This document shows positions 40,740 through 59,302 of a stretch of DNA of 64,000 nucleotides, piece after piece. The stretch spans positions 1-64,000 of the forward strand of contig WTKN01000066.1 in NCBI GenBank assembly GCA_011524395.1. Reading direction: 5' to 3'. The translations under genes and the position numbers were made by a program. The notes under the pieces are model-generated. The model worked only from the letters and a program-made list of their open reading frames with translations, was not told where the DNA came from and ran no database searches. How positions within the stretch are numbered: the first letter of the stretch is position 1; the number at the start of each line of letters is the position of its first letter. This DNA is from Moorena sp. SS36440bin_2. GTDB taxonomy: Bacteria > Cyanobacteriota > Cyanobacteriia > Cyanobacteriales > Coleofasciculaceae.

Positions 40740-43700
40740 GTGGTTAAGAATCAGTCTATGTCTAATTCTAAACTTGACATGGCATTGGCCCAGCTCCAAG
40801 ACGACTTGGATAGCTTTGAAAAGAATCTGATCCAACGTATCCAAGGGAAAGACACGATGTCGGATAAATTCACAGAATTAAGCAATATAAACCAAAAACT
40901 GGCACAAACTCCTATCGCCATTATTGGCATGGCATCGCTTCTACCGAAAGCCAGAAATTTGCAGGAATACTGGACGAATATTCTTGAAAAAATCGACTGC
41001 ATTACTGATGTTCCTGCCTCCCACTGGAATGCAGACGACTACTACGATCCAGACCCCAGGGCACCGGACAAAACCTACTGCAAAAGAGGCGGATTTATCC
41101 CACATATCGATTTTAACCCGATGGAGTTTGGGCTCCCTCCGAATATCCTCGAAGTAACAGATGTTTCCCAGCTGTTAAGTCTAGTAGTGGCAAAGGAAGC
41201 GATCGCAGATGCCGGCTATGGCAAATCCCGGGAGTTTAACCGAGAGCGTACTGGGGTTATCCTAGGCTCGGCACTTGCAAAACAACTATCTACACCACTT
41301 TCAGTTAGATTGGAGTATCCGATTTGGGAGAAAGTTCTAAAAAGTAGTGGGTTATCGGATCAGGATACTAAAAAAATTGTCGAAAAGATAAAGCTAGCCT
41401 ATGTGCAGTGGAATGAAAATGCTTTTCCCGGGATGCTAGCTAATGTGATTGCTGGACGAATTGCCAACCGTCTAGATTTGGGGGGAACAAACTGTGTAGT
41501 GGATGCCGCCTGTGCTAGCTCATTAGGTGCTTTAAAAATGGCAATTAGTGAGCTGAGTGAGCATCGCGCTGACATGATGCTCACTGGAGGAGTTGACACC
41601 GATAACTCCCTTGCGGTCTATATGTGTTTCAGCAAAACCCCTGCCCTCTCCCCAAACCAGACTATTAAGCCTTTCGATGCTGAGTCGGATGGGATGATGC
41701 TGGGTGAAGGCATCGGAATCCTGGTACTCAAACGTCTGGAGGATGCTAAGCGAGATAATGACAGAATTTATGCTGTGATCAAAGGTATTGGCACCTCCAG
41801 TGATGGTCGATTTAAAAGCATTTACGCTCCTCGCCCAGAAGGACAAGCGAAAGCGTTGAAGCGTGCTTACGAAGATGCAGGTTTTTCTCCTACCAGTATT
41901 AGCCTGATTGAAGCACATGGTACAGGGACTAGGGCTGGGGATCCCAGTGAATTCCAGGCTCTAAAAGACGTTTTTAGTGAAAACAACCCCAAAAAGCAGT
42001 ATGTTGCTCTCGGTAGTGTTAAATCCCAGATTGGGCATACCAAAGCTGCGGCTGGTGCAGCTAGTCTAATCAAAACTGCCTTGGCTCTACACCACAAAAT
42101 CTTACCACCTACGATTAACATCACCAACCCCAACCCAGCACTGGATATTGATAATTCACCATTTTATTTGAATACTGAAACCCGACCCTGGATTCGCGCT
42201 GAAGGAGATGGGCCAAGGCGTGCTGGTGTGAGTTCCTTTGGCTTTGGTGGCACCAATTATCATGTTGTTCTGGAAGAATATGAACCCGAACATAATAATG
42301 CTTATCGTTTACACCACACTTCCGAGTCTATTCTCCTTTCTGCGCCAACACCGGAGCAATTGTTAGCTCGTTGTGAAGATACCTTACAAAAGTTGCAATT
42401 TAAAACTGGAGAGCAGCACTACCAGAAACTAATTGATAGCTGTAAAGTTGAAGAAATTCCGGTCACTGAAGCCAGAGTGGGATTTGTGGCGGATTCTCTA
42501 ATACAAGCTTGCAGATGCTTACAAACCACTATTAACTGGCTAAAAAAGAAACCACAAGCACAATCGTGGAATCATCCCCAAGGGATCTACTATCGTCAAA
42601 GTGCCATAGAGCTGAAAGGAAAAGTCGTTGCTCTATTTTCAGGGCAAGGTTCCCAGTATCTAGAAATGGGGCGGGAACTAGTGATGAATTTCCCTTGTTT
42701 GCGCGAGACCTATGGTTATATCGATAGTCTGTTCCTCAAGGATAGTTTGAAGCCCGTTTCAGAAACGGTTTTTCCTGCCCCTGTGTTTGATACAGCTCAA
42801 CGGCATATCCAGACTGAAGCACTGCAACGTACAAATTATTCTCAGCCAGCCATCGGAGCCTTCAGTGTTGGTCTTTATAAGATTCTGCAACAAGCAGGAT
42901 TTAAGCCTGATTTTATTGCTGGACACAGCTTTGGAGAACTCACTGCTCTCTGGGCTGCTGAAGTTTTGAGTGATCAGGATTACTTTTTCCTAGTTAAAGC
43001 TAGAGGCCAGGCCATGGCAACCCCAGATGATCCAAATTTTGATCCGGGAGCCATGTTGGCGGTGAACGAAGACTTTAATCGAGTCCAAGAGGTTATTGAT
43101 AGTTTTCCTCAAGTTACCATTGCCAATTTCAATTCCAATTGCCAAGTAGTCTTAGCCGGTTCAACAGCAGAAATTGCGAAGGTACAGCAAGTATTTACTG
43201 AAAAAGGGTATTCTGCTACTTTGCTGCCAGTTTCCGCTGCCTTCCATACTCCTCTGATTGGACATGCCCAAAAAGCGTTTGCTCAAGCCACTGAAGCAGT
43301 TACGTTCAAAAAAGCAAAAATTCCTGTTTATACCAATGTGACTGGGGAGCGTTATCCCACTGAACCCCAAGACATTAAAAACATTTTGGGAGTACATTCA
43401 AGCAAGTCAGTACTGTTCAAGCAGGAAATCGAAACTATTTACAATGCAGGGGGGTATTGCTTTGTTGAGTTTGGACCTCGGAGCATCCTGACCCACTTAG
43501 TAAAGGATATCCTTGGTGATAAACCCCATGTCGCCGTAGCCTTAAACGCGAGTCGTCAACAGGATAGCGATCGCCAATTGCGTCAAGCAGTTATGCAGTT
43601 GCGCGTGGCAGGTTTGCCGTTGAAAAACCTCGACCCCTACCAAATTGAGCCTCCAGCACCCAAGACTGAGGAGAAAAAAGTCCTCAAGTACCGGTTAAAT

Positions 43701-46700
43701 TGCGCTAATTATGTGTCAGAAAAGACGAAAAAGGCTTTTGAACAGGCTTTGCAGGATGGACATCAAGTGACATCTCTTGGTCAGGATAATGGGGCAAGTC
43801 ATGGATCGAAAGTTGAAACTCAACAGACACAAATGGTCAGCAATGGAAATGGGTCTAGCCAGAGCAATGGTCACACAGCTAAGGCCAATGATCAGGGGAG
43901 TTCTTCAACTAAGCTTGTCACTCCGAAACCATTGGTGAGTAATGGAAATGGGTCTAGCCAGAGCAATGGTCACACCCCTAAGGCCAATGATCAACGGAGT
44001 TCTTCAACTAAGTTTGTCACTGCGAAACCATTGGTGAGTAATGGAAATCCGTCTAGCCAGAGCAATGGTCACACCGCTAAGGCCAATTATCAACGGAGTT
44101 CTTCAACTAAGTTTGTCACTGCGAAACCATTGGTGAGTAATGGAAATGGCTCTAGCCAGAGCAATGGTCACACCGCTAAGGCCAATTATCAGGGAAGTTC
44201 TTCAACTAAGCTTGTCACTGCGAAACCATTGGTGAGTAATGGAAATGGCTCTAGCCAGAGCAATGGTCACACCGCTAAGGCCAATGATCAGGGGAGTTCT
44301 TCAACTAAGCTTGTGACTCGATCGACACCATTGGTGAGTAATGGAAATCCGTCTAGCCAGAACAATGGCTTCTGGGCGATCGCCCAGAAGCCAGGAAACA
44401 GGATTGCACTCTCCCCATTCATCCAGCCCACATCTCGGTTACGTCCCATGGAGACTTCTCAGACTAAACCAACATCAAATCCCACTGAACTTACCCAGAA
44501 GCCAAGTGAGCATCTTATGACCTCCTCTGGAAGTAGCACCAATCACAAGTCTGATGCTAAACCAGCACTAGCTCTTACTCAACCGGCTCTTGAATCGAAA
44601 ATGCCCTCAACACCAACCCTATCTCTAAATTCCCAACGTATTTTAGAGAGCTTAGAGCATAGCTTGAAGTTGTTTAGTCAGCATCAAGGTGAAACGTTAC
44701 ATGTTCACGGACAATATCTGAACAATCAGCTGGAATATGCCAAAACCTTTTTCCAACTGATGCAGCAGCAGCATTCCTTGTTTGGCAACAGCAACGGAAC
44801 TGATCAACAAGCGCAAACGAAGCAAGTTGTGATAAAGAGCTTAGAGCGCACTATGATGCAGTTTCACCAGCATCAAGGTCAGACTCTCAACGTCCATGAG
44901 CAATATTTAAACCATCAGCTAGAGTATACCAAGAACTTTTTCCAACTGGTAAAACAGCAGTATCAAGAGGTTCTCAAAGGTGAGGTTGTTGATCAACCAG
45001 GGCTAGAAGCTGGTAATGGTAATCAATTGCTGGGGAAGGAGTTAAACACACAAGCTACTTCTACAACGGTGACAACATCGGTTACTAGTGTTCAGGATAG
45101 TCTCAATAATTTACCATCCACTCCTAAACTGACTACAGAGACCAAAGAAACAAATAAGTTAGTAGAGCAGCAGGATAGCCAAACCTCTGACAATGGGCAA
45201 GTTGTCAACCAAGAGGAAACAGTTAAACCGAATCTCTCTGATAGCTCTAGTAACACAAGTGGATCTATAACTGTTCCTGCTGCTACCCTGGTGAAGGAGC
45301 CAGAGCCAGAGCCAGCTTTAAGCAATGTCTCAAAACCCGTTCAGGAAAGTTTAGAAACTGAAGTCAAGCTTGAGCCAACAGCAAAAGTAGCATCTTCACC
45401 ATCAGCAGCCACGGATATTAATGAGATTAGCCAAACTCTGCTAGATGTGGTTAGCGAGAAAACCGGCTATCCAGCGGAAATGTTAGAGCTGGATATGGAC
45501 ATGGAAGCGGATTTAGGGATTGACTCCATCAAACGGGTGGAAATTCTAGGTGCTTTGCAGGAGCTGAATCCTGATTGGCCTGAAGCTAATCCAGAGCAAC
45601 TTGGAGAACTGCGTACCCTTGGTCAAATCGTGGAGTACCTACAGTCCCATGCTTCCAAGGTTCTCCCTGTCGAAGCTGAAATAACAACTAACACCTCACC
45701 TGAGATAGAAACAATCCAATCTGAGTCAGTAGAGAGTAATGATGTTAAACCAGTTGTAGAAAATCCAGCCGTAGAAACTTCAACTATAGATGTTGAGGCC
45801 ATCAGTCAAACTCTGCTAGATGTGGTTAGCGAGAAAACCGGTTATCCAGCAGAAATGTTAGAGCTGGATATGGACATGGAAGCGGATTTAGGGATTGACT
45901 CCATCAAACGGGTTGAAATTCTAGGTGCTTTGCAGGAGATGAATTCTGATTTGCCTGAAGCCAATCCAGAGCAACTTGGAGAACTGCGTACCCTTGGTCA
46001 AATCGTGGAGTACTTACAGTCGCAGGCTTCCAAGGTTCTCCCTGTCGAACCTGAAATAACACCTAACACCTCAGCTGAGATAGAAACAATCGAATCTGAG
46101 TCAATCGAATCTGAGTCAATCGAATCTGAGTCAGTAGAGAGTAATGATGTTAAACCAGTTGTAGAAAATCAAGCCCTAAACACTTCAACACCATTAACAG
46201 CTATAGATGTTGAGGCCATCAGTCAAACTTTGCTAGATGTGGTTAGCGAGAAAACCGGCTATCCAGCGGAAATGTTAGAGCTGGATATGGACATGGAAGC
46301 GGATTTAGGGATTGACTCCATCAAACGGGTGGAAATCCTAGGCGCTCTACAGGAGATGAGCCCTGATTTGCCTGAAGCGAATCCAGAGCAACTTGGAGAA
46401 CTGCGCACTCTTGGTCAAATTGTTGAGTATCTTCAACAGCAGACAGTTACGACTGAAAAAAAAGAGTTCCAGAACCAGCCTTTTAATGAGCAACTTGACC
46501 TAGATCATAATATTCCACGCTGTTTAGTAAAACTGAAAGCTCTGCCTGATCCAGATAGTTTGGATTTCACTTTACCTGACAAACATATTGTTTTGTTAAC
46601 CGATGATGGTTCACTAACTACATCGAAACTGGCTCAATCCCTAACAGAGCGTGACTGGAAAGTGGTGGTCTTAAGTTTTCCCCAATCCCTAATTGCAGAA

Positions 46701-47234
46701 CAAGCATCTTTACCCAAAGCAGTTAGTCGTATTGTGTTGAACGATTTGAGTGAGGAGCATTTGAAACAACAATTGGCAGCCATTACTGCTAACTATGGTT
46801 CCGTTGGTGCATTCATTCATCTCAATCCTGCGATTCAGATCCAGCCCAATCATGGGATTGGCTTTCTTGAGCTAGAAAAAGCTCTTCTTAAGCAGGTTTT
46901 TTTGATTGCCAAACATCTCAAACCATCACTGAATGAAGCCGCACGTCAAGGACGGAGTTGTTTCATGACTGTTGCTCGTCTTGATGGAGCGTTTGGTTTA
47001 GCACAAAACGTGAACTTTGGTGCAATTGGTGCAGGTCTATTTGGATTGACTAAAACCCTCAACCTTGAATGGGAATCGGTATTTTGCCGGGGCATTGACC
47101 TAAGTCCTGACCTAAATGCTGAGGAGTCGGCTGAGTATATCATGGCTGAACTTCATGATCCCAACCGTTATATTGCCGAAGTTGGATATAGTTCACAGGG
47201 GCGAGTCACCCTGGGTACTGAACAATCTATCTGA
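40740..47234 (+). CDS. hglE: Hgl/Pfa-type lipid synthase: KS-AT-ACP-ACP-ACP-KR structural half
   Basis: This 2164-aa iterative synthase numbers from a GTG; an ATG six codons on (40758) is equally plausible. KS (about 57-515) has Cys258 (VDAACASS), His393 (EAHGTGTRAGDP) and His433 (QIGHTKAAAG). AT (about 628-960) has Ser730 in GHSFGE. A long linker contains 33-aa repeats (about 1035-1210) and two related 45-aa helical repeats (about 1300-1405). Three nearly identical ACPs carry the arm on Ser1596, Ser1721 and Ser1860 (each GIDSIKRVEILGALQE). The C-terminal 250 aa are the non-catalytic half of a ketoreductase, ending GRVTLGTEQSI. The KS resembles HglE of heterocyst glycolipid synthesis and PfaA of PUFA synthases. 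The catalytic KR half is in the next gene. Confidence 0.92.
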   Translation: MVKNQSMSNSKLDMALAQLQDDLDSFEKNLIQRIQGKDTMSDKFTELSNINQKLAQTPIAIIGMASLLPKARNLQEYWTNILEKIDCITDVPASHWNADDYYDPDPRAPDKTYCKRGGFIPHIDFNPMEFGLPPNILEVTDVSQLLSLVVAKEAIADAGYGKSREFNRERTGVILGSALAKQLSTPLSVRLEYPIWEKVLKSSGLSDQDTKKIVEKIKLAYVQWNENAFPGMLANVIAGRIANRLDLGGTNCVVDAACASSLGALKMAISELSEHRADMMLTGGVDTDNSLAVYMCFSKTPALSPNQTIKPFDAESDGMMLGEGIGILVLKRLEDAKRDNDRIYAVIKGIGTSSDGRFKSIYAPRPEGQAKALKRAYEDAGFSPTSISLIEAHGTGTRAGDPSEFQALKDVFSENNPKKQYVALGSVKSQIGHTKAAAGAASLIKTALALHHKILPPTINITNPNPALDIDNSPFYLNTETRPWIRAEGDGPRRAGVSSFGFGGTNYHVVLEEYEPEHNNAYRLHHTSESILLSAPTPEQLLARCEDTLQKLQFKTGEQHYQKLIDSCKVEEIPVTEARVGFVADSLIQACRCLQTTINWLKKKPQAQSWNHPQGIYYRQSAIELKGKVVALFSGQGSQYLEMGRELVMNFPCLRETYGYIDSLFLKDSLKPVSETVFPAPVFDTAQRHIQTEALQRTNYSQPAIGAFSVGLYKILQQAGFKPDFIAGHSFGELTALWAAEVLSDQDYFFLVKARGQAMATPDDPNFDPGAMLAVNEDFNRVQEVIDSFPQVTIANFNSNCQVVLAGSTAEIAKVQQVFTEKGYSATLLPVSAAFHTPLIGHAQKAFAQATEAVTFKKAKIPVYTNVTGERYPTEPQDIKNILGVHSSKSVLFKQEIETIYNAGGYCFVEFGPRSILTHLVKDILGDKPHVAVALNASRQQDSDRQLRQAVMQLRVAGLPLKNLDPYQIEPPAPKTEEKKVLKYRLNCANYVSEKTKKAFEQALQDGHQVTSLGQDNGASHGSKVETQQTQMVSNGNGSSQSNGHTAKANDQGSSSTKLVTPKPLVSNGNGSSQSNGHTPKANDQRSSSTKFVTAKPLVSNGNPSSQSNGHTAKANYQRSSSTKFVTAKPLVSNGNGSSQSNGHTAKANYQGSSSTKLVTAKPLVSNGNGSSQSNGHTAKANDQGSSSTKLVTRSTPLVSNGNPSSQNNGFWAIAQKPGNRIALSPFIQPTSRLRPMETSQTKPTSNPTELTQKPSEHLMTSSGSSTNHKSDAKPALALTQPALESKMPSTPTLSLNSQRILESLEHSLKLFSQHQGETLHVHGQYLNNQLEYAKTFFQLMQQQHSLFGNSNGTDQQAQTKQVVIKSLERTMMQFHQHQGQTLNVHEQYLNHQLEYTKNFFQLVKQQYQEVLKGEVVDQPGLEAGNGNQLLGKELNTQATSTTVTTSVTSVQDSLNNLPSTPKLTTETKETNKLVEQQDSQTSDNGQVVNQEETVKPNLSDSSSNTSGSITVPAATLVKEPEPEPALSNVSKPVQESLETEVKLEPTAKVASSPSAATDINEISQTLLDVVSEKTGYPAEMLELDMDMEADLGIDSIKRVEILGALQELNPDWPEANPEQLGELRTLGQIVEYLQSHASKVLPVEAEITTNTSPEIETIQSESVESNDVKPVVENPAVETSTIDVEAISQTLLDVVSEKTGYPAEMLELDMDMEADLGIDSIKRVEILGALQEMNSDLPEANPEQLGELRTLGQIVEYLQSQASKVLPVEPEITPNTSAEIETIESESIESESIESESVESNDVKPVVENQALNTSTPLTAIDVEAISQTLLDVVSEKTGYPAEMLELDMDMEADLGIDSIKRVEILGALQEMSPDLPEANPEQLGELRTLGQIVEYLQQQTVTTEKKEFQNQPFNEQLDLDHNIPRCLVKLKALPDPDSLDFTLPDKHIVLLTDDGSLTTSKLAQSLTERDWKVVVLSFPQSLIAEQASLPKAVSRIVLNDLSEEHLKQQLAAITANYGSVGAFIHLNPAIQIQPNHGIGFLELEKALLKQVFLIAKHLKPSLNEAARQGRSCFMTVARLDGAFGLAQNVNFGAIGAGLFGLTKTLNLEWESVFCRGIDLSPDLNAEESAEYIMAELHDPNRYIAEVGYSSQGRVTLGTEQSI
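43842..44372 (+). repeat. 99-bp tandem repeat, five to six copies, in the synthase linker
   Basis: Units begin at 43842, 43941, 44040, 44139, 44238 and 44340 (period 99, last step 102). Each encodes a Ser/Asn/Gly-rich unit around SNGNGSSQSNGHTAKAN. The period is a multiple of three, so copy changes keep frame. It forms a flexible spacer between AT and ACPs. Confidence 0.9.
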
Positions 47235-47845
47235 ATATAGTGTTTGAGTACTGAGTGCTCAGTTTGACTAGTGGCAAAAATTAGGGTGCATCTTACCAAA
47301 CTGGAACAATCAACCAACACGTTGAAGATGTTACGGCGGTTTGCATATAGCAATTCTACGACTTGTGAGGTACAAATCTCTGGGAGGGAGCAGGAAGCAG
47401 GGAGCAGGGAATAGGGAGCAGGGAGCAGGGAGCAGGGAGCAGGGAATAGGGAGCAGGGAATAGGGAGCAGGGAATAGGGAGCAGGGAATAGGGAATAGCG
47501 AAAAAATAATGTGTACCTCATAGCTACGATAAACGCTATCTTACGCTTTGTTAAATAGAATGAATAAGCTTTAAAGCAGGCAAGATAGCCCGTTATATAA
47601 GTGAAGTTTATTGTTTAAAATACGGCAAAAAATAATTAAAAGTTCCTGTTTTTAGGTTAATAAGTCAGTAATAATACGATAGGATTATTTGCTTAAACTG
47701 TCCTATCGTGTCTTATGGATGCTTGCTTTAAAAATGTGGCTTGCTCCCTAACCAAGTGCCACAAACTATAGTTTTACACCCCTGACAATAAAAGTTAAAA
47801 ATAGTAACTATTTATCAATTAAATATAAAATTATTGGAAAATTTT
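47235..47845. other. 600-bp spacer splitting the ketoreductase, with GGAGCAGG minisatellite
   Basis: The stretch between the two halves of the KR contains a GGGAGCAGGGAATAG-type array (about 47393-47500) and AT-rich DNA. It has no gene and no clear mobile-element ends. The TTG at 47834 and ATG at 47846 restart the frame. Confidence 0.7.
47393..47500. repeat. GGGAGCAGGGAATAG minisatellite
   Basis: Roughly a dozen copies of GGGAGCA and GGGAATA alternate. A sister array of GGGAGCAGGGACCAG occurs at about 55650-55750. Confidence 0.85.
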
Positions 47846-49567
47846 ATGTTCGAAACAGCTCAAATCAGTCAATCATCAGTGTTTCTTGTCAGTGGCGGAG
47901 CAAAAGGGATTACCGCTGAGTGCGTGATTCGGATAGCACAGCAGCAACCATGCAAATTTATTCTACTGGGTCGTTCATCAATCATGACAGATGAACCAGC
48001 TTGGGCAAAGGATTGTTTTCATGAATCTGAATTGAAAAAACGGATTATGGAAAATATCCTTGCCCAAGGACAGAAGCCTACCCCGATGGAAGTACAACGG
48101 ATATTTAAGACAATTGTTTCGAGTCGAGAAATTCACAAAACTCTCTTGGCAATTGAACAGGCAGGCGCTCAGGCAGACTATATTGATGTTGATGTAACCG
48201 ATGCTCTAGCCTTACAGGAAAAGGTGGCAACTGTCGTTGAGCGCATGGGTCCAATTACCGGTATTATCCACGGAGCAGGGGTTTTAGCGGATAAATTAAT
48301 TGAAAAGAAATCGGAACAAGATTTTGAGACCGTTTATGCTACCAAAGTAAAGGGTTTGGAAAATCTGCTGAGTTGCTTCAGCCCAGGTCAACTGGATTAT
48401 TTAGTTCTATTTTCTTCTGTAGCTGGTTTTTACGGAAATATCGGTCAGTCGGACTATGCGATCGCAAATGAAATTCTCAACAAATCAGCTCATCTGGTCA
48501 AGCAACACCATCCCTCCTGCCATGTGGTTGCCATAAATTGGGGACCTTGGGACAGTGGTATGGTGACTGCGGAACTAAAGAAGGCGTTTGCTAAGCGCAA
48601 CGTTGAAATTATTCCGATCCCAGTGGGGACAAACATGCTAGTTAAGGAACTGGATACTGCCAATCAGGAAACGGCGCAAGTAGTGATTGGCACTCCAATG
48701 GAACCGGTATTCCGGGAGTTAAACCCTGAGTTACAAACCTATCGTATTCGCCGCAAGTTGACACTGGAAGCTAATCCCTTTTTACAAGATCACGTGATTG
48801 GGGGTTATCCAGTATTGCCAGCTACTTGTTGCGTAGGATGGATTATTAATGCCTGTGAACAACTGTATCCGGGTTACAAATTCTTCAGTTACACAAATTT
48901 CAAGGTCTTGAAAGGGATTATTTTCAATGATAATCTCGCAAGCGAATATGTTCTAGATCTAAAAGAAATTGCTAAGAACGACGATTCAATAGAATTTGAA
49001 GGAAAGATCTGGACTAAAAAAGAACAAAGTAAAATTCCTTATCATGAGCATTATCGGGCTACTATTAAGCTAGTCAGAGAAATCCCTAGTGCTCCCACTT
49101 ATGAGGACGTTAACATTGAAGAAGATCCGAGAATTGCTGAACAGGTTGAATACCCATTATATCAAACTGGAAAATACACGTTATTTCATGGTCCTTCCTT
49201 TTGGGGAGTGAACAAGATATTGAATCTGACTCCTGAAAAAGTGACTACAGAATGTGCTTGGCAATCTATTAGTTATCGACAACAAGGACAGTTTAAAGTT
49301 CAAACTTTCAATCCCTATATTGCTGATCTTCAGACACACTCTAATGGGATTTTAATTTATGCTTTTCATCAAGAGCAGTTGTTACCTTCCCAATCGGAAA
49401 AGTTTGAACAATTTGCCATGATTCCACCCGACGAAACGTTTTATATATCTACCGAACTACGATCTAAAATCAGTAATAAAGTTCAGGCTGATATCATAGC
49501 CCATAATCGTGAAGGAAAAATGTACTCCCGTTGGGTTGGCTGGAAAGGAACAATTTTTCCTCTATAG
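47846..49567 (+). CDS. Ketoreductase catalytic half plus dehydratase (KR-DH)
   Basis: I start at ATG 47846 (573 aa); an upstream TTG adds four residues. Residues about 8-270 are the NADPH-binding catalytic KR half: FLVSGGAKGITAECVIRIAQ, the catalytic Ser/Tyr/Asn set in LFSSVAGFYGNIGQSDYAIANEIL, and INWGPWDSGMV. From about 310 on comes a PUFA-synthase-type double-hotdog dehydratase with catalytic His316 (DHVIGGYPVLPATCC) and a second hotdog half (PLYQTGKYTLFHGPSFWG). In PfaA-type proteins the KR halves are one polypeptide; here the break falls exactly between them. It must act with the product of the upstream gene. Confidence 0.9.
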   Translation: MFETAQISQSSVFLVSGGAKGITAECVIRIAQQQPCKFILLGRSSIMTDEPAWAKDCFHESELKKRIMENILAQGQKPTPMEVQRIFKTIVSSREIHKTLLAIEQAGAQADYIDVDVTDALALQEKVATVVERMGPITGIIHGAGVLADKLIEKKSEQDFETVYATKVKGLENLLSCFSPGQLDYLVLFSSVAGFYGNIGQSDYAIANEILNKSAHLVKQHHPSCHVVAINWGPWDSGMVTAELKKAFAKRNVEIIPIPVGTNMLVKELDTANQETAQVVIGTPMEPVFRELNPELQTYRIRRKLTLEANPFLQDHVIGGYPVLPATCCVGWIINACEQLYPGYKFFSYTNFKVLKGIIFNDNLASEYVLDLKEIAKNDDSIEFEGKIWTKKEQSKIPYHEHYRATIKLVREIPSAPTYEDVNIEEDPRIAEQVEYPLYQTGKYTLFHGPSFWGVNKILNLTPEKVTTECAWQSISYRQQGQFKVQTFNPYIADLQTHSNGILIYAFHQEQLLPSQSEKFEQFAMIPPDETFYISTELRSKISNKVQADIIAHNREGKMYSRWVGWKGTIFPL

Positions 49568-49768: not shown

Positions 49769-52700
49769 ATGAATAAAATAGCAATAATTGGATTTTCTTG
49801 CCTTTTTCCAGATGCCAAAAATCCAGAAGAATTCTGGAATAATCTGATTAACGGAAAAGATTCAACTTCAGTATTAAGTGAGGATGACATAGGACTTGAC
49901 CCGGCAATTTTTTTTAATCCATTAAAAAATCAACCGGATAAAACATACTCCTTAAGGGGAGGATATATCCGAGATTTTACGTTTGATGCCACTGGATACA
50001 ACTTGCCTTCAGAAGTCCTTGAAGGGTTAGATCCTCTCTTCCAAGGGTGCCTGTATGTTACCAAACAAGCACTGCAACATAGTAATTATTTGAGCAATGA
50101 CAGGGTGCTGTCAAAGTCGGGTGTAATTCTTGGTAATGTCTCAACCCTTACTCAACTCTCGAATCAACTATTTATATCGATTTATGAGCAGACCATTGAA
50201 GCTGCACTTCGGGAGCTTTTGCAGAATGAAAACTTCCAGTTAGCAAAATTACCGAAATCTGCCAAATTATCTCTGTATAATGGCATGAGCTATGGTGCGG
50301 TATCAGCCTTAGTCGCTCAAGCTTTTTCTCTATCCGATATTAACTATACCCTAGACTCTACCTGTTCCTCATCACTGTATGCAGTGAAATTGGCAAGTCA
50401 TTACCTACTCTCCCACAAAGCTGATTTGATGTTAGCGGGAGGGGTTAGTTATAGCGATCCAATTTTCGCTCGGATGCTATTTTCTGGTATTCACGCTTAC
50501 CCGGAAAATGATGTCAGCCGACCATTAGATCAATCTTCCCAAGGTCTAACCCCAGCAGATGGGATTGGTATGGTGGTGCTCAAGCGATACAGTGATGCGA
50601 TTCGAGATGGCGATCAAATTTATGGGACAATCTGTGGTAATGGATTATCTAATGATGGTCGGGGAAAGCACCTGCTGAGTCCGAACCCCCGAGGGCAAAT
50701 GTTAGCCTATGAACGAGCCTATACTGAGGCACAGATTAGTCCAAAGAGCATCGATTATTTAGAATGCCATGCTACTGGTACTCCCCTTGGTGATACCACT
50801 GAACTTGGCTCTGTTGATAGCTTCTTTGGTCCGCATCAAGCTTCTATGCTGGTGGGTTCTGTGAAGTCTAATCTGGGTCATTTGGTCACTGCTTCTGGCA
50901 TGGCTAGCATCATTAAAGTCATTTTGAGTATGTCTAAGGGTGTAATACCCCCGACCATTAATATCACGAATCCCCTCAGCTCTCCTAATAATGTGATTGC
51001 AGCGGACCAAGTGGTTCGAACTGCAACTCCCTGGCCGAGCAATAGACCGCTTAAACGGGCAGCCATTAATACCTTCGGTTTTGGCGGAAATAATGCTCAT
51101 TTGATTCTTGAGCAATCCACTCAGGTCGAAGAAATCCCTGATGTTGAAGCGGAACCCTCTACACCCGTGCCAGCTACTAAGATAGCGATTGTGGGCATGG
51201 ACAGCTTTTTTGGCTCCTGTGATGGTTTGGATCAGTTTGAGCGCAGTATTTATGATGGAACCCAGCATTTTATCCCCGTTCCTAACCAGCGCTGGAAGGG
51301 AATTGACGAGGAAGAGCAATTGCTCAAGGACTATGGCTTTACAGACGGTAAAGCACCCATAGGCGCTTACATCCAAGATTTTGACATTGACTCATTACGG
51401 TTTAAGATACCGCCCAATGAAGCAGACACACTCAACCCTAAACAACCGCTAATGCTTAAGGTAGCGGATCGTGCCTTGAAAGACGCAGGACTAAGTGAGG
51501 GGGAAAATGTGGCAGTGATTATCGCTGCAGAAAGCGAACTTACTGGTCACCAGCTTCAGGAGCGATGGCATTTGTCTTGGCAACTCAAAAAAAGTTTTGT
51601 TGACACGAATGAATCCTTAGTCTCTGAAGCTATCGATACCCTAGAAGGCATTGTTAAAGATAGCATGCACGAGCAGGCAAAAAGCAGTGACTATCTAGGT
51701 TACCTGGGTGCGATCACAGCCAGTCGTATTTCTGCTCTGTGGGATTTCAACGGACCTTCCTTCACCCTCGGTGTTGGGGAAAATTCCACCTTCAAAGCTC
51801 TAGAAACAGCACAACTATTACTCGCTGCTGGGGAGGTAGATGCGGTAGTTGTGGGTGCTGTTGACCTAGCTGGGGGCGCGGAAAATGTTTTGTTGCGAAA
51901 CCAATTGGCTAAGGTCAACACAGGAGTCAATACCCTAAGTTACGACCAAAACACTAATGGCTGGATGGTTGGTGAAGGGGCTGGCGCTGTGGTTTTAAAG
52001 CGTCTTGATACAGCCAAGCAAGACCAAGACCGTATTTATGCAGTGATTGATGCCATCAGTTTGGTACAACGCCGTAGCACATCAGACCAGGCCAATACTT
52101 TCCCGCAACCGCCTCTGGCTGAAACTGTTATACAAGCCTGTGAACAGGCTCATACTCAAGCAGAAATCACACCTGGGGATATTGGCTATTTAGAAGTGTT
52201 TGGTAGTGGAGTCGCTCAGGAGGATGAGGCAGAGATTCGCGGATTAACCCAAGCGTATCAAACTCCCAAGCCTGATTTAAGCTGTGCAATAGGTAGTGTC
52301 AAGGCAAATATTGGTCATACCTATGTTGCTTCAGGAATTGCTAGCTTAATCAAAACTGCACTCTGTGTCTATCACCGGTATATTCCAGGAACACCTCAAT
52401 GGACTGCTCCTAAAATGCCCGAGGTTTGGCAAGGTAGTCCATTTTATGTGGCAAGTGCATCAAGACCTTGGCTTTTACCACCAGAGAGCACTAAACGAGT
52501 AGCAGCAATTAACGGTATGGGACTGGAGGGGACTTATGCCCATATAGTTTTGTCAGAGGAACAGAGTCAGTGCGATCGCAAGAGCAGCTATTTGGAACAA
52601 ACACCGTTTTATCTGTTTCCCATTGCTGCTGATGGTCAATCGGAGTTATTCGAGCAGCTGCATAATTTAGAACAAACTATCGAAAATTGTGTTTCTCTAT

Positions 52701-54520
52701 CTACTGCTGCTCGCCAAACCTTTGCCACGTTTAAAAAACGTTCTCAGGCCACTTATACCCTAGCAATTCTGGGACACAACAACGATGAATTAAAACGAGA
52801 GATCCAGCGTGCAATTAAGGGGATTCCCAAGGCTTTTGATACAGGTAAAGACTGGCAAACCCCTGTGGGAAGCTATTTTACAGCTAAACCACTGGCTAAA
52901 CGAGGTACCGTTGCATTTGTTTATCCCGGTGCTTTCAATTCCTATATCGGACTAGGTCAGAATATTTTTCGACTGTTTCCCAAAGTCTACAACGAGGCAG
53001 ATCAACATATCACCAATATCGCTTTGCTCCTGAGGGAAAAACTTTTTTATCCAAGGAGCTTAAATGCCTTATCCAGAAAGCAACTGGAAGTCCTTGAACA
53101 GCGACTGTTAGATGATTCCCATAGCATGCTCACATCTGGAATTTGCTTTGTTAGAATCTTGACCATCATCATGAGGGATTATTTCAAAGTTCAGCCTGAA
53201 TCTACCTTTGGGTACAGCCTAGGGGAACTTAGTATGATGATTGGTCAGTCAGTCTGGACTAACTATGAAGAGGCGATCGATGGCTTAAGCTCCTCTGAGA
53301 TATTTCGCAAAAGACTATCTGGTCCTAAAAACGCAGTTCGCGACTATTGGGGATTACCCCAAGGCAACGATGATCAGCACAAACAAATTTGGAGTACCTA
53401 TGTTCTGATCACTCCGGTAGCCCAAGTTGTGGAATATCTCAAACATGAGAATCGGGTCTATCTTACTCATATCAATACGCCAAAAGAAGTGGTAATTGCT
53501 GGTGATCCTCAAGCTTGTCGGAGGCTGATTGACACTCTCAAATGCGATGCCTTCCGTGCTCCTGCCGATGATGTACTTCATTGTGACGCCATGGCTTCTG
53601 AATACCATGAACTTGCCAGACTCACCAGTTTACCTATCGGCAACCAACCAGAGACTATTTTTTATTCTGCAGCCGACTACAAACCCATTACCCTTGAAAG
53701 CCATGCCATTGGCCATGCTATCGCCAAGGGTCTTTGTCAGCCCCTCGATTTTCCTCGGCTAATTAACCAAGTCTACGACAATGGAGCCAAGATCTTTGTG
53801 GAGATAGGCGCTGGCAGTACTTGTTCTAGATGGATTCGTGAAAACCTCAAGGATAAGGAAAATGTCACCGTTTCCCTCAATAAAAGAGGTTCAAATGACC
53901 ATACCTCTATTGTCAAAGCCTTGGCCAAGCTAGTTAGTCATCAAGTCTCTCTGGATTTGTCTGCGCTGTATACTCAGGAAGCAGAAAATGCGGGTCAGCG
54001 GCGCTCAATGGTTAAAACCATAACCTTGGGTGGGAGCCGGATTAAGTCCAGCATTTTGAGCAATACTAACCAGGAAATTGCTGAAACTTTATCGTCAAAT
54101 GTCTTAATTCATAAGACTTGGGAACAGCCACAAACTTTACCCAATTTTGAAGCATCTGAACCCATAACTTCATCAAACTTTCAAAGTACTGTCCTAAACG
54201 ATGAAAATAGTGATAAGTGTGCTTTAAATTACAGCCTTGCAAGCACTAAAAAAATAAACTATGGCCAGGCTATTAAAATCCCCCTAGAGAATAAAAAATA
54301 CAGTCTAGAATTAGACAAAGAAAGTAATAATTTTGGCCTGGAAGTAACCCTAAGCGAATTACACAAGACTCAGTATAAAAACCTGAGTTATAATACATCT
54401 CGCATCACCAAAAACCATTCTGCTTTTTTAAGGAATCAAGAAGAATCCTTGAAGCAAATTGGTGACATTATTCAGCACCAAGTAACGTTTTCAAAGCAGT
54501 TACTTGATTCTGAATCATAA
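49769..54520 (+). CDS. KS-chain length factor-acyltransferase (PfaC N-terminus plus PfaB-like)
   Basis: In this 1583-aa protein the KS (1-455) has Cys199 (DSTCSSSLYAVK), His334 (ECHATGTPLGD) and a later NLGHLVTASG. A chain length factor (about 470-935) follows; its nucleophile is replaced by Glu671 (LGVGENSTFK) and its first histidine motif is lost (FGSGVAQED). An AT domain (about 1045-1390) has Ser1150 in GYSLGE rather than GHSxGE. The tail (about 1430-1583) is Asn/Ser-rich and ends in a helical motif, HSAFLRNQEESLKQIGDI. Pfa/Hgl systems use KS-CLF to set chain length. The dehydratases that follow KS-CLF in PfaC are absent; DH is supplied by the previous gene. Confidence 0.9.
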   Translation: MNKIAIIGFSCLFPDAKNPEEFWNNLINGKDSTSVLSEDDIGLDPAIFFNPLKNQPDKTYSLRGGYIRDFTFDATGYNLPSEVLEGLDPLFQGCLYVTKQALQHSNYLSNDRVLSKSGVILGNVSTLTQLSNQLFISIYEQTIEAALRELLQNENFQLAKLPKSAKLSLYNGMSYGAVSALVAQAFSLSDINYTLDSTCSSSLYAVKLASHYLLSHKADLMLAGGVSYSDPIFARMLFSGIHAYPENDVSRPLDQSSQGLTPADGIGMVVLKRYSDAIRDGDQIYGTICGNGLSNDGRGKHLLSPNPRGQMLAYERAYTEAQISPKSIDYLECHATGTPLGDTTELGSVDSFFGPHQASMLVGSVKSNLGHLVTASGMASIIKVILSMSKGVIPPTINITNPLSSPNNVIAADQVVRTATPWPSNRPLKRAAINTFGFGGNNAHLILEQSTQVEEIPDVEAEPSTPVPATKIAIVGMDSFFGSCDGLDQFERSIYDGTQHFIPVPNQRWKGIDEEEQLLKDYGFTDGKAPIGAYIQDFDIDSLRFKIPPNEADTLNPKQPLMLKVADRALKDAGLSEGENVAVIIAAESELTGHQLQERWHLSWQLKKSFVDTNESLVSEAIDTLEGIVKDSMHEQAKSSDYLGYLGAITASRISALWDFNGPSFTLGVGENSTFKALETAQLLLAAGEVDAVVVGAVDLAGGAENVLLRNQLAKVNTGVNTLSYDQNTNGWMVGEGAGAVVLKRLDTAKQDQDRIYAVIDAISLVQRRSTSDQANTFPQPPLAETVIQACEQAHTQAEITPGDIGYLEVFGSGVAQEDEAEIRGLTQAYQTPKPDLSCAIGSVKANIGHTYVASGIASLIKTALCVYHRYIPGTPQWTAPKMPEVWQGSPFYVASASRPWLLPPESTKRVAAINGMGLEGTYAHIVLSEEQSQCDRKSSYLEQTPFYLFPIAADGQSELFEQLHNLEQTIENCVSLSTAARQTFATFKKRSQATYTLAILGHNNDELKREIQRAIKGIPKAFDTGKDWQTPVGSYFTAKPLAKRGTVAFVYPGAFNSYIGLGQNIFRLFPKVYNEADQHITNIALLLREKLFYPRSLNALSRKQLEVLEQRLLDDSHSMLTSGICFVRILTIIMRDYFKVQPESTFGYSLGELSMMIGQSVWTNYEEAIDGLSSSEIFRKRLSGPKNAVRDYWGLPQGNDDQHKQIWSTYVLITPVAQVVEYLKHENRVYLTHINTPKEVVIAGDPQACRRLIDTLKCDAFRAPADDVLHCDAMASEYHELARLTSLPIGNQPETIFYSAADYKPITLESHAIGHAIAKGLCQPLDFPRLINQVYDNGAKIFVEIGAGSTCSRWIRENLKDKENVTVSLNKRGSNDHTSIVKALAKLVSHQVSLDLSALYTQEAENAGQRRSMVKTITLGGSRIKSSILSNTNQEIAETLSSNVLIHKTWEQPQTLPNFEASEPITSSNFQSTVLNDENSDKCALNYSLASTKKINYGQAIKIPLENKKYSLELDKESNNFGLEVTLSELHKTQYKNLSYNTSRITKNHSAFLRNQEESLKQIGDIIQHQVTFSKQLLDSES

Positions 54521-54537: not shown

Positions 54538-55416
54538 ATGAAGCGTAAAACACTATTTGTATTGACTTGGGTATCTACCATCGTTCTAATTCTATGCTGG
54601 GTGTTACCTACAAATGCCTTCAACGAGTTCTACCGCAACGGACTCAGAGGACACAGTACCTTTCATTACGAATTTACTCGCACCTTAATGCGGGGAGCGG
54701 GTTTCTCGCCAGAATTGGCAGAACAGATTGCAGTTACCAATCAAGCTGTGGACTCAGTTAACTTTACAGGTTACACCGGCACTAACGTGCGTCTCAGGAA
54801 AACCCTTCGTCAGGGTCAGTACAGTAAATACTGGCACTTTCCCCGACGGGGTTGCAATGATTCATTCGGTGTGTCCTATCCCACTGAGGCCAGCGAATGC
54901 AACACTTGCAACTACTTCACCGACAGTTCCGACTCCTGTCCAAGGGGAATCCCAGAGTTAAAGACCATGGACCAGTGGGCTCTTTACGGCAATTCTGACG
55001 ATCTGCTGGTAACGCCTAAATACTCTTTGAATCGTCGGAGATTCAAAACTGTACCGGCAAGCTCTATCACGGCTTTAGCGATTTTTCTCCATTCCCTTGC
55101 TGATTCCTATTCCCATGAAGCCTGTATGGAAAGCATGCAGCTGCGGGAGCACAAACCATCTCCTGCAGAGTGCAATGTCTTGCTCTGGCATCTGGATTTA
55201 GAGTTTGGTGGTGGTGATGCAGGTGTGCCCTATACCAAAAATGCTGGTCGTGCTGTCTTTAAGGCGGCCGTACAGTATATAGCCCAGAACCGAGAAGGTG
55301 GTGATCAGCTGTGGAGCTTTGATGAGGCGAACCACTTTATTGAGAAGTTTGCTGAAATCGAATCTCCTGATGAGCGTGCCCAATTTGCTATAGACACCTA
55401 CAATAATCTCTTATAA
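54538..55416 (+). CDS. Secreted zinc phospholipase C / P1-nuclease-like protein
   Basis: This 292-aa protein begins 17 bases after the KS-CLF-AT stop, so it is almost certainly co-transcribed with the synthase. A signal peptide covers about 1-27 (KRK, hydrophobic core, PTNA). The mature part is helical with spaced metal ligands: His39 and His43 (GHSTFHYEF), His185-x3-Asp189-x3-His193 (HSLADSYSHE) and His218-x3-Glu222 (HLDLE). These resemble the trinuclear zinc site of bacterial phospholipase C and P1 nuclease. Four cysteines (about 106-134) could form disulfides. I do not know the exact family. An extracytoplasmic hydrolase acting on the lipid product or on its acceptor is the working idea; a catalytic role is unproven. 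Confidence 0.6.
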   Translation: MKRKTLFVLTWVSTIVLILCWVLPTNAFNEFYRNGLRGHSTFHYEFTRTLMRGAGFSPELAEQIAVTNQAVDSVNFTGYTGTNVRLRKTLRQGQYSKYWHFPRRGCNDSFGVSYPTEASECNTCNYFTDSSDSCPRGIPELKTMDQWALYGNSDDLLVTPKYSLNRRRFKTVPASSITALAIFLHSLADSYSHEACMESMQLREHKPSPAECNVLLWHLDLEFGGGDAGVPYTKNAGRAVFKAAVQYIAQNREGGDQLWSFDEANHFIEKFAEIESPDERAQFAIDTYNNLL

Positions 55417-55848: not shown

Positions 55849-57543
55849 ATGACTCAAACTAGCTCTAAACCAATAAAAGCTTTAGATAAAAATCTAAGTA
55901 AAAATAATAATGAAACTAATAAAATCGGATTTTTAAATTGTTTTTATGGTCAAAATCAAGGTTGGCAAGGGTCTTTGGATGGGATAGCATTTGATGATCG
56001 AGGCATTAAGGCTAAACTGCTAGATTTAGATAAATCCTGTTATATTGTTAGATCCCAAGGACAGATTGGCGTAACCCAAGAAGGGTACTGGTATCCTTCC
56101 GAAAATGGCAAAAGCTCTCAAATAGAACTGCTGATGGCAGTTCCACCAATACAAATTCAACAGTTAGGCGATCCCAGTTTTTTATCCTTTCATGGGGTAA
56201 AATCTGCCTATGTTACTGGAGCGATGGCTGGTGGAATTGCATCCGAGGAAATGGTCATTGCTCTCGGCAAAGAGAAAATTTTGAGTTCATTTGGTGCTGG
56301 GGGATTAAGTCCTTCCCGCCTGGAAGCAGCTATTAAACGTATTCAACAAGCCTTACCCCAAGGTCCCTACGCCTTTAATTTAATTCATAGTCCCAGTGAA
56401 CCTGCCATTGAACGCCATGCTGTTGATCTATTTATCAAATATGGTGTTCACACTGTAGAAGCGTCTGCATTTCTAGATTTAACTCCCAACATTGTTTATT
56501 ATCGAGCTGCTGGATTAGGACTGAATACAGCTAATCAAATCGAAATCAAAAACAAAGTTATTGCTAAAATTTCCAGAAGAGAAGTTGCTGTAAAATTTCT
56601 CCAGCCTGCTCCAAAACAAATCCTTAAAAAACTTGTTGAGCAGGGATTAATCAGTGAGCTACAGGCAACTTTGGCAGAAAAAGTTCCCATGGCAGACGAT
56701 ATCACCGTAGAAGCTGATTCAGGTGGTCATACAGATAATCGGTCTTTGGTTTGTCTGTTACCTTCTATCTTGGAATTGAGGGATGAAATTCAGGAAAAAT
56801 ATGGTTATCAAAACCCGATTCGAGTTGGAGCTGCTGGTGGTATTGGTACGCCACAATCAGCCTTAGCTGCTTTTATGATGGGTGCGGCTTATGTTATGAC
56901 TGGATCTATTAATCAGTCTTGCCTTGAAGCTGGAACATCTCAACATGCTAAGGAAGTGTTGGCTAAAGCTGATATGACTGATGTCACCATGGCTCCAGCA
57001 GCAGATATGTTTGAAATGGGGGTAAAACTTCAAGTCCTCAAAAAAGGCACCCTCTTCCCCCTACGGGCCCAGAAACTATTTGAGTTATATAGAAGCTATG
57101 ACTCGATTGAAGCTATTCCTATCGAGGAAAGAGAAAAACTGGAAAAACAAATTTTCAAGAGAAAAATCGAAGCTATCTGGGAGGATACAATAGCTTATAT
57201 ATCCAAACGAAATCCTGATAAAATAAAACAAGCTGCCAATAATCCTAAGGTAAAAATGGCTCTGATTTTTCGCTGGTACCTAGGATTGTCATCGCGTTGG
57301 TCCAAGTCAGGGGAGAACGGCAGAGAAATCGATTATCAGATTTGGTGCGGACCTGCAATGGGCAGCTTTAATAACTGGGTGCAAGGGTCTTACCTCGCTG
57401 CTCCAAATAATCGCAGTGTGGTTGATGTGGCTCACCACATCATGAATGGGGCTGCATTTTTACACCGAATACAGAGTTTAAAAATTCAAGGACTCCAAAT
57501 GCCAGATTACTACAGTCAGTATCGCCCAGTTCCTCTTTCCTAA
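55849..57543 (+). CDS. pfaD: PfaD-type enoyl reductase
   Basis: This 564-aa FMN-dependent TIM-barrel protein (2-nitropropane dioxygenase-like) reduces enoyl intermediates for the synthase in trans. Family signatures are plain: FHGVKSAYVTGAMAGGIASE near 120, GAGGLSPSRLEAAIKRIQ, HSPSEPAIERHAVDLFIKYG, the FMN-phosphate region RVGAAGGIGTPQSALAAFMM near 325, and VMTGSINQSCLEAGTS. Length fits PfaD. It follows the PLC-like gene by 432 bases and is followed by a diiron oxygenase. With PfaD present the chain can be partly or fully reduced, as in PUFA and heterocyst-type lipids. Confidence 0.93.
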   Translation: MTQTSSKPIKALDKNLSKNNNETNKIGFLNCFYGQNQGWQGSLDGIAFDDRGIKAKLLDLDKSCYIVRSQGQIGVTQEGYWYPSENGKSSQIELLMAVPPIQIQQLGDPSFLSFHGVKSAYVTGAMAGGIASEEMVIALGKEKILSSFGAGGLSPSRLEAAIKRIQQALPQGPYAFNLIHSPSEPAIERHAVDLFIKYGVHTVEASAFLDLTPNIVYYRAAGLGLNTANQIEIKNKVIAKISRREVAVKFLQPAPKQILKKLVEQGLISELQATLAEKVPMADDITVEADSGGHTDNRSLVCLLPSILELRDEIQEKYGYQNPIRVGAAGGIGTPQSALAAFMMGAAYVMTGSINQSCLEAGTSQHAKEVLAKADMTDVTMAPAADMFEMGVKLQVLKKGTLFPLRAQKLFELYRSYDSIEAIPIEEREKLEKQIFKRKIEAIWEDTIAYISKRNPDKIKQAANNPKVKMALIFRWYLGLSSRWSKSGENGREIDYQIWCGPAMGSFNNWVQGSYLAAPNNRSVVDVAHHIMNGAAFLHRIQSLKIQGLQMPDYYSQYRPVPLS

Positions 57544-57636: not shown

Positions 57637-57726
57637 ACGTTTACTATGAAAACTAGTACAGGGTGCTGGAGACCATCTAACTTATAGATTACGTAGATTA
57701 CGTAATTTTTAGCTAAGGATAATAGT

Positions 57727-58953
57727 ATGCTAAAAACCCATAAAGCACCAGAAAAAGGAAGTCAATTTTCAACTCCATCAGACAAGGTTGTCCATGGTCG
57801 CAAGAATCTTAAGCTGATGGATGTTAATTATCGGCGTAACACTGAGTCAGATTACACCGAAAAAATAGAGGAGTTGTATAAAAACTTTGATTATAGCAGC
57901 AATAGCGATTATTACTGGGGTGAACCTGAGCTTTCACTGCTGTACGGTAGCCCCCTCTATGAAGCGGCTTCACCCTCACAACAAAAAGCTCTAAATCATC
58001 TCTATTGGGCTTTGAATTACTATTTAATTGCTGCGACTGAAACGAATACAATTTTATTCAATGAAGTGACAGCAAATGCGTTCTTTCCCTTTGATGATTA
58101 CGAAGTTCTCTGCCATGCCCTAGACGTTGAAACTAATCAAGAACGTTACCATGTTCGTGCCTTTAACACTATTGGTAGTAAGACAGAGTTAGCCCTAATG
58201 GGCGAAACAGTTTTTCATTGTGCTAGGTCAACCAAACCTAAGGATATAGATAAAACCTTAGCTGCCTTCAAAGGGATGGGTGGACGTACAAGCTTTCCTT
58301 TGGCAATGCAAGTGTACACCATCAGTATCAGTAATTCTCCTTTTCTAGCGAGCCAGTACTATACTGCCCGTGGGATTGGCAATTTAAATCTCAAAAATAA
58401 GGAATATACTTTTTCCCAGTTATATAAGAGATTAGAGAAAAATGGTGAGTTTATTCCGGCTCCCACAGCAGTTTCTCGTTATCATCTACTAGACGAAAGT
58501 TTCCACACCGCAACGTCTCAGTTAATGTCCCACGAAATCTATAAGGATTTCCCTGAGCCAAACCTGTGGGAGAAGCACATTGGTAATCAAACAATCTACA
58601 GGTTACAAATCGATGTGTTTAATGGGCTATCTACTACACTCCCTGGTACCTTTGGTGGAAATCTTATGCCTATGGTGTATAAGCTCTTGCAAACACCTCT
58701 ATTTGGGATGTCTAAGCAAGACGCACTACTGATGATGGAGAAGTGTTTCTGTCAGGAACATGAAGGCTTACATGTGGCAGCTAAATATCACCAGCGTCTT
58801 CTATCGGATATCCGCAAGTTTCTCGAAGGTCTAGACTATTTGTCACCTGTTAATCGCGAGATGCGTCTGATGGCTTCATCCGGTTCACTTGAAAAAGCTG
58901 TCGCAAATAACATTCGAGAGTTTAAACAGTTCTCGAGATCCGTTAAGCGTTAG
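57727..58953 (+). CDS. AurF-like diiron oxygenase
   Basis: This 408-aa helical ferritin-like enzyme has a two-iron ligand set visible as Glu105, Glu135, Glu139-x2-His142 (ERYH), Glu257-x2-His260 (ESFH) and Glu346-x2-His349 (EGLH). The pattern is that of the AurF family, which oxidises amines to nitro groups, although members with other substrates are known. It lies 61 bases before a [2Fe-2S] ferredoxin, the natural electron donor, and 183 bases after pfaD. Its likely substrate is the acyl chain on a carrier or the released lipid; hydroxylation, desaturation or chain cleavage are all possible. I do not claim N-oxygenation. Confidence 0.78.
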   Translation: MLKTHKAPEKGSQFSTPSDKVVHGRKNLKLMDVNYRRNTESDYTEKIEELYKNFDYSSNSDYYWGEPELSLLYGSPLYEAASPSQQKALNHLYWALNYYLIAATETNTILFNEVTANAFFPFDDYEVLCHALDVETNQERYHVRAFNTIGSKTELALMGETVFHCARSTKPKDIDKTLAAFKGMGGRTSFPLAMQVYTISISNSPFLASQYYTARGIGNLNLKNKEYTFSQLYKRLEKNGEFIPAPTAVSRYHLLDESFHTATSQLMSHEIYKDFPEPNLWEKHIGNQTIYRLQIDVFNGLSTTLPGTFGGNLMPMVYKLLQTPLFGMSKQDALLMMEKCFCQEHEGLHVAAKYHQRLLSDIRKFLEGLDYLSPVNREMRLMASSGSLEKAVANNIREFKQFSRSVKR

Positions 58954-59014
58954 GTCCAACTTCTGTTAGCTCCTACTCCAGTAATGTTATAAATGAGAGA
59001 CCCAAATTGTTGCT

Positions 59015-59302
59015 ATGGTGAGTATTCACGTTGAGGACGATCAAAAAATCATTGAGGTTGCACCGAACCAAAACCTAGCTGATATCTGCGATGATCATCC
59101 CATTTCCCTGCTTTTTGGTTGTCGGGAAGCATCCTGTGGAACCTGTCTAATCGAGGTAGTGAAAGGCATTGAAAACCTTTCACCTATCACACCTGATGAG
59201 CAGGATTTGCTTGATGTGTTAGCTCCAGAAAATCCTCACGCACGTCTAGCTTGCCAGTGTGTTGTGATGGGCGATATTAGTATCAGTAGTCTACAGGGGT
59301 GA
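59015..59302 (+). CDS. [2Fe-2S] ferredoxin
   Basis: This 95-aa plant-type ferredoxin has its cluster ligands at Cys36-x4-Cys41-x2-Cys44 (FGCREASCGTCLIEV) and Cys80 (RLACQC). The length is standard. It follows the diiron oxygenase by 61 bases and presumably reduces it. The stop codon lies inside a GTGAGGGGAT repeat. Confidence 0.9.
   Translation: MVSIHVEDDQKIIEVAPNQNLADICDDHPISLLFGCREASCGTCLIEVVKGIENLSPITPDEQDLLDVLAPENPHARLACQCVVMGDISISSLQG

What the first reader, a model, noticed from the sequence alone, without database searches (positions are those of the whole stretch)
40740..59302. Hgl/Pfa lipid synthase joined to an AurF-like diiron oxygenase and its own ferredoxin
Observed: KS-AT-3ACP-KR, KR-DH, KS-CLF-AT, PfaD, then an oxygenase with three ExxH motifs and a plant-type ferredoxin, all on one strand. 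Known: PUFA and heterocyst-glycolipid synthases use the first set; the usual Hgl partners HglA/HglB (thioester reductase) are not in the window. Inference: chain release or tailoring runs through diiron oxidation instead, giving a hydroxylated, desaturated or chain-shortened lipid not described for these systems.
Basis: partly seen in the sequence, partly recalled or inferred. Interest (0 to 1): 0.85.

Follow-up and report, generated by a model that had tools for sequence, protein, structure and literature searches.

The report
Cyanobacterial lipid synthase with chlorinating enzyme

Summary
In detail: 40740-59302 encodes a complete Hgl/Pfa-type lipid synthase, then a diiron protein and a [2Fe-2S] ferredoxin. 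The interpretation does not. The 'AurF-like oxygenase' carries equivalents of all nine residues essential in the diiron halogenase NocO, including the Gln that replaces an AurF Asp, and groups with the ACP-associated CylC halogenases. The set is kept in all five Moorena genomes examined; the window genome has one CylC and one CylK homolog, both here. Most likely the synthase makes a long acyl chain, the halogenase (fed by its own ferredoxin) chlorinates it, the PKS module and CylI turn it into an alkylresorcinol, and the CylK homolog displaces chloride, giving an exported phenolic lipid. Each part is known; their union was not found in the papers read, though Eusebio 2021 lists an orphan CylC class with 'nitronate monooxygenase', PKS and ferredoxin that may overlap. 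New variant of a known kind; product unknown.

The parts
40740..47234 (+). HglE/PfaA-like KS-AT-3xACP with a partial (structural) KR at the C-terminus; 99-bp tandem repeats in the linker (43834-44368)
47271..47741 (+). remnants of a PapA5-like acyltransferase gene that is longer (386-472 aa ORFs) in three other Moorena genomes; not a working gene here
47834..49567 (+). HglF-like catalytic KR plus dehydratase (HxxxGxxxxP)
49769..54520 (+). HglC-like KS-CLF-AT (active KS DSTCSSS, CLF without Cys, PfaB-type AT)
54538..55416 (+). DUF6765 protein, role unknown; ORF cut to 99-109 aa in three of the other four Moorena
55849..57543 (+). PfaD/HglG enoyl reductase (shares the nitronate monooxygenase Pfam domain)
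57727..58953 (+). CylC-type diiron (dimetal-carboxylate) halogenase homolog: E105, Q138, E139, H142, E226, H253, D256, E257, H260
59015..59302 (+). [2Fe-2S] ferredoxin, proposed dedicated electron donor of the halogenase
36988..38853 (-). CylK homolog (alkyl-halide-using coupling enzyme); Arg105 and Tyr473 kept, Asp440 replaced by Glu as in BrtB
34666..35970 (-). DevB/HgdB-type membrane fusion protein
33291..34463 (-). DevC/HgdC-type permease
32481..33221 (-). DevA/HgdA-type ATPase
32102..32383 (-). free-standing CylB-type ACP (Ser in YNLESADALILL); the listed TTG start at 32437 is probably too early
28120..32046 (-). type I PKS module KS-AT-ACP-TE without reductive domains
26689..27810 (-). 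CylI-type type III PKS (resorcinol-forming family), Cys-His-Asn present
26082..26678 (-). ICMT-like methyltransferase
25048..26085 (-). O-methyltransferase
23819..24934 (-). sulfotransferase

Best explanation
The locus is one Moorena biosynthetic cluster with two divergent arms that makes an exported long-chain phenolic lipid by way of a chlorinated intermediate. (1) The HglE/F/C/G-like synthase builds a long acyl chain on its ACPs. (2) The CylC-type diiron halogenase, reduced by the adjacent ferredoxin, puts chlorine on an unactivated carbon of an ACP-bound acyl chain. (3) The KS-AT-ACP-TE module and the CylI-type type III PKS extend and cyclise the chain to an alkylresorcinol, which is methylated and perhaps sulfated. 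(4) The CylK homolog displaces the chloride, forming a C-C or C-O bond to a second molecule or to the ring. (5) DevBCA exports the product. Shown by sequence: gene content, residue signatures, family placement and conservation in five genomes. Inferred: substrates, order of steps, the resorcinol and all chemistry.
For: Halogenase: the window protein has the QExxH and HxxDExxH motifs plus both further glutamates, i.e. equivalents of all nine residues that NocO needs for chlorination; the position that is Asp135 in AurF is Gln here, and Rieske-cluster homologs have Gln where NocO has Glu252. It falls on the side of the ACP-associated CylC clade, which includes the tandem pair of M. bouillonii PNG taken here to be the columbamide halogenases, separated from the Rieske group by a branch with support 100. 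NocO was assayed with ferredoxin and ferredoxin reductase. CylK homolog: E 1e-140 to PDB CylK with Arg105 and Tyr473 equivalents in 5/5 Moorena; in the literature CylK-type proteins with both residues mostly occur with a CylC (42 of 53 organisms). Type III PKS: full-length match to PDB CylI, E 8e-147. One pathway: the genome has one CylC and one CylK homolog, both here; halogenase, ferredoxin, synthase genes, CylK and DevBCA are kept in all five Moorena genomes, and the type III PKS and sulfotransferase in the four whose contigs reach that far. Handing a Pfa-type acyl chain to a type III PKS has a precedent, the Azotobacter ars cluster.
Against: No product, expression or activity data. The CylK homolog has Glu at position 440 and Thr at 374, where paracyclophane-forming CylK has Asp and Glu, so C-C coupling to a resorcinol is not assured. 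In one genome (G388) the two arms lie on separate contigs, split between the PfaA-like gene and KR-DH. The characterised CylC enzymes act on short FAAL-loaded ACP chains; there is no FAAL in this locus, though several are elsewhere in the genome. The halogenase is the deepest lineage of its clade and about 410 aa instead of about 460. The structure prediction failed.
Confidence: 0.62

Rival explanations
1. Two neighbouring pathways: the + arm makes a chlorinated Hgl-like lipid, while the - arm separately makes an alkylresorcinol from ordinary fatty acids; CylK either joins the two or serves only one.
For: The arms are divergent with a 1.9-kb gap; G388 has them on different contigs; the - arm has its own ACP and TE; Hgl-like islands with an exporter and no type III PKS occur in other cyanobacteria.
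Against: The only CylC and the only CylK of the genome sit in opposite arms, both arms are co-retained in 5/5 Moorena, and the split in G388 runs through the synthase genes, not between the arms.
Confidence: 0.2
2. The CylK homolog makes C-O bonds (ester or ether, as BrtB and NglO do) rather than aryl C-C bonds, so the product is a lipid ester, ether or oligomer and not a paracyclophane. This rival concerns only step 4 of the best explanation.
For: Glu at position 440 as in BrtB, and non-CylK residues at 374, 318 and 334; NglO forms ethers from a chlorolipid.
Against: The CylI homolog should supply a resorcinol of the kind CylK alkylates; Glu keeps a carboxylate at that position.
Confidence: 0.45
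3. One reading: the diiron enzyme is an oxygenase that hydroxylates, desaturates or cleaves the lipid and so takes the place of HglB in chain release.
For: Ferritin-like diiron family with a ferredoxin next to it; in five Nostoc genomes a distant AurF-like protein holds the same place after PfaD, with a ferredoxin behind it where read; some CylC relatives (Rieske group) have unknown function.
Against: Halogenase signature and tree place, the CylK partner with alkyl-chloride residues, and a TE plus type III PKS that explain release.
Confidence: 0.1

Closest known systems
Cylindrocyclophane (cyl) and merocyclophane (mer) clusters
   Same: CylC halogenase, CylK, CylI type III PKS, free ACP, type I PKS; mer has a TE-ended PKS (PMC8086630)
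   Different: The chain comes from an iterative Hgl/Pfa synthase instead of FAAL plus modular PKS; DevBCA exporter; Glu instead of Asp440 in CylK; ferredoxin gene beside the halogenase
Nostochloroside (ngl) cluster of Nostoc punctiforme
   Same: CylC plus CylK homolog making a chlorinated lipid that is then coupled (PMC10849952)
   Different: FAAL, glycosyltransferase and sugar genes, no CylI; an ngl-like locus read here (G627:C13; its identity with ngl is inferred) has modular KS-AT-KR-ACP PKS and no PfaD
'Nitronate monooxygenase-containing' CylC clusters of Eusebio et al. 2021
   Same: CylC homolog with NMO-domain protein, type I PKS, ferredoxin, ACP; orphan (PMC8406957)
   Different: Reported only in three Nostocales; type III PKS and CylK not named for the class; maps are in supplements that could not be opened
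hgl and hgl-like islands
   Same: HglE/F/G/C parts and the HgdBCA (DevBCA) exporter; a Moorea island is in the published tree (PMC11804610)
   Different: No HglB thioester reductase on the contig; halogenase, CylK and type III PKS added
Azotobacter ars cluster (type P secondary lipid synthase)
   Same: Pfa-type synthase feeding type III PKSs to make phenolic lipids (PMC3098273)
   Different: No halogenase, CylK or DevBCA described for it
Bartoloside-like locus in G633 (Nostocaceae, found here)
   Same: Hgl/Pfa synthase, PfaD, CylK, CylC, ACP and DevBCA in one locus
   Different: DarB and a putative DarA (dialkylresorcinol) instead of a type III PKS; no ferredoxin adjacent

Membership tests
CylC-type dimetal halogenase | Nine residues essential in NocO (QExxH, HxxDExxH, two further Glu) | tested here: met
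   NocO sequence itself not held, columns placed by motif and spacing
CylC-type dimetal halogenase | Groups with ACP-associated CylC, not with the Rieske-cluster group | tested here: met
   no named CylC or AurF sequence in the tree
CylC-type dimetal halogenase | Chlorinates ACP-bound acyl chains | not testable with these tools
   needs an assay
AurF-type N-oxygenase | Asp (D135) before the first ExxH | tested here: not met
   Gln138; Pfam AurF below cut-off
CylK family | N-terminal Ca2+ domain plus beta-propeller, Arg105 and Tyr473 | tested here: met
CylK family | Asp440 (paracyclophane formers) | tested here: not met
   Glu in 5/5 Moorena, as in BrtB
CylI-type type III PKS | Full-length similarity and Cys-His-Asn triad | tested here: met
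hgl island | HglE, F, G, C parts and DevBCA exporter | tested here: met
hgl island | HglB thioester reductase in the cluster | tested here: not met
   none on contig C427
PUFA (Pfa) synthase | FabA-like DH pair on PfaC | tested here: not met
   no such domain in any of the four synthase proteins
[7.7]paracyclophane cluster | CylC + CylK + CylI + FAAL-loaded ACP | tested here: inconclusive
   first three and an ACP present; no FAAL in the window

The most novel reading that the evidence does not exclude
A PUFA/heterocyst-lipid-type iterative synthase supplies a very long chain that is cryptically chlorinated, made into a resorcinol and coupled by a CylK homolog, giving a new class of exported, possibly macrocyclic or oligomeric phenolic lipid shared by the whole genus Moorena.
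Probability: 0.5. Interest if true: 0.75.

Novelty: new variant of a known kind. Interest (0 to 1): 0.6.

Why it matters
Moorena is among the most heavily mined natural-product cyanobacteria, yet this genus-wide cluster has no product that I found. It would extend diiron halogenation from short FAAL-loaded chains to a PUFA-type synthase, give a CylC with a ferredoxin gene beside it (a clue to its natural reductant), and offer a CylK homolog with a BrtB-like active site beside a CylI, which makes the C-C versus C-O question directly testable.

Tried and rejected
AlphaFold of the halogenase from four sequences gave mean pLDDT 35 and was not used. PDB searches with the halogenase, alone or as a profile, found only chance matches. 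A FAAL in the window was sought and not found. I first took the ~620-aa ORFs after the ACP in G633, G500, G380 and others for FAALs; the G633 one has only a TubC docking domain and none matched a FAAL, so that was dropped. The ngl cluster was considered as the same system and rejected for lack of a type III PKS and, judged by an ngl-like locus, of a Pfa-type synthase. A single origin of the Hgl-CylC link (Moorena with G633) was tested and not rejected (p-AU 0.56), but it is not shown; the PfaD tree does not pair them. Supplements of the key papers could not be read.

Full report
What is there. The window is bases 1-64000 of a 125.9-kb contig of a 7.75-Mb cyanobacterial genome. Its halogenase gene product is 99% identical to one in Moorena sp. 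SIO3H5 and 95% to one in M. bouillonii PNG, so the organism is a Moorena. The catalytic residues of the synthase are intact. FabA-like DH domains of true PUFA synthases are absent, which matches the Hgl type (type F of Shulse and Allen, PMC3098273).

The diiron protein. It has no Pfam family above cut-off. NocO, a CylC homolog shown to be a diiron halogenase, needs nine residues, seven of them in QExxH and HxxDExxH (PMC12101540). All nine have equivalents here: E105, Q138, E139, H142, E226, H253, D256, E257, H260. AurF has Asp where Q138 stands. The homologs of the Rieske-type clusters have Gln at the E226 column. In a tree of 65 homologs the five Moorena proteins are a lineage on the ACP-associated CylC side, whose other members mostly sit beside an ACP and a type I PKS. 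Identity is about 41-58% per segment to that side and 34-39% to the Rieske side. I therefore call it a CylC-type halogenase; activity is inferred.

The missed arm. Upstream and divergent lie, in order, a CylK homolog, DevB, DevC and DevA (all above NCBIfam cut-offs), a free ACP, KS-AT-ACP-TE, a type III PKS that matches PDB CylI over its full length, two methyltransferases and a sulfotransferase. CylK uses Arg105 and Tyr473 to activate the alkyl chloride, and Asp440 and Glu374 to hold the resorcinol (PMC8916777). The Moorena proteins keep the first two and have Glu440 and Thr374; BrtB, which makes C-O bonds, has Glu440 and Arg374.

Conservation. All five Moorena genomes (the window's included) have the halogenase, ferredoxin, PfaD, the KS-CLF-AT and KR-DH genes and the CylK-DevBCA arm; the type III PKS is seen in four, and in the fifth (G389) the contig ends just before it. 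In G388 the set is split over two contigs, the PfaA-like gene going with the CylK arm. Of 391 genomes of the order, 100 have a PfaD of this type. Of 80 of those searched for the halogenase, 44 have some homolog, but by the listed coordinates only the Moorena genomes and G633 have the two side by side. G633 (Nostocaceae) has synthase, PfaD, a putative DarA, DarB, CylK, CylC, ACP and DevBCA together, a dialkylresorcinol version of the same idea. The window genome has no second CylC or CylK homolog.

Ferredoxin. A homologous ferredoxin lies within about 1.5 kb of 25 of the 29 Rieske-group CylC homologs fetched, and beside the halogenase in all five Moorena; a similar one follows a distant AurF-like protein in Nostoc hgl-like loci (whole or first part read in four of five). 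This fits an electron donor for the diiron site and is not proof of it.

How it works. The best reading is given in the statement field. The hand-over of a Pfa-type chain to a type III PKS is known from Azotobacter (PMC3098273). Chlorination before ring formation and coupling is known from cyl (PMC8086630). What is not known here is chain length, site of chlorination, whether the halogenase works on the free ACP or the synthase ACPs, and whether the final product keeps chlorine.

Release. No thioester reductase is on the contig. A PapA5-like acyltransferase stands between the PfaA-like and KR-DH genes in three Moorena, and only fragments remain in the window, so it is not essential to the cluster in this species unless the homolog on C224 (43%) replaces it.

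Novelty. Eusebio et al. reported orphan 'nitronate monooxygenase-containing' CylC clusters with PKS and ferredoxin in three Nostocales, and type III PKS CylC clusters in orders that include Oscillatoriales (PMC8406957). [quoted passage not shown] The Moorena locus may be in those tables. I found no text that describes the union of an Hgl/Pfa synthase with CylC, CylI and CylK, nor a product.

Noticed in passing
L132:14686-16321 (G658) and L133:14142-15777 (G627); also L079, L082, L084: In five Nostoc genomes PfaD is followed by a 432-433 aa protein distantly related to CylC (hhalign E 5e-10; EExxH instead of QExxH) and, in four where that stretch was read, a ferredoxin similar to the window's (64-65% identical where complete).
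   Followed up: partly
L006, L009-L012, L014, L016-L021, L024-L026, L099, L103, L105, L108-L111, L113-L115: A homologous [2Fe-2S] ferredoxin lies next to 25 of 29 Rieske-group CylC homologs, which suggests a general ferredoxin partner for that group; none was seen at the FAAL-type CylC loci.
   Followed up: partly
window 47271-47741: A PapA5-like acyltransferase gene decayed to two fragments with a GGGAGCA-type tandem repeat (47385-47502) between them; ORFs of 386-472 aa remain in G386, G387 and G388.
   Followed up: yes
window 54538-55416; L121, L123, L127: The DUF6765 gene between KS-CLF-AT and PfaD is full length here and in M. bouillonii but its ORF is only 99-109 aa in three other Moorena.
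   Followed up: partly
window 17202-22517: Three tandem paralogous UDP-glycosyltransferase genes (427-428 aa) and an FkbM methyltransferase near the sulfotransferase; two such glycosyltransferases lie there in G388 too, none in the stretch read of G386. They may decorate the product.
   Followed up: partly
L125 / L126 (G633:C48): Nostocaceae cluster with Hgl/Pfa synthase, PfaD, a putative DarA, DarB, CylK, CylC, ACP, DevBCA and a 622-aa TubC-docking protein of unknown function: a likely new bartoloside-like lipid cluster.
   Followed up: partly
window 7327-15874: A chemotaxis-like set (CheA-type kinase, dCache/GAF receptor, CheW, response regulator) conserved beside the cluster in G386 and G387.
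   Followed up: no
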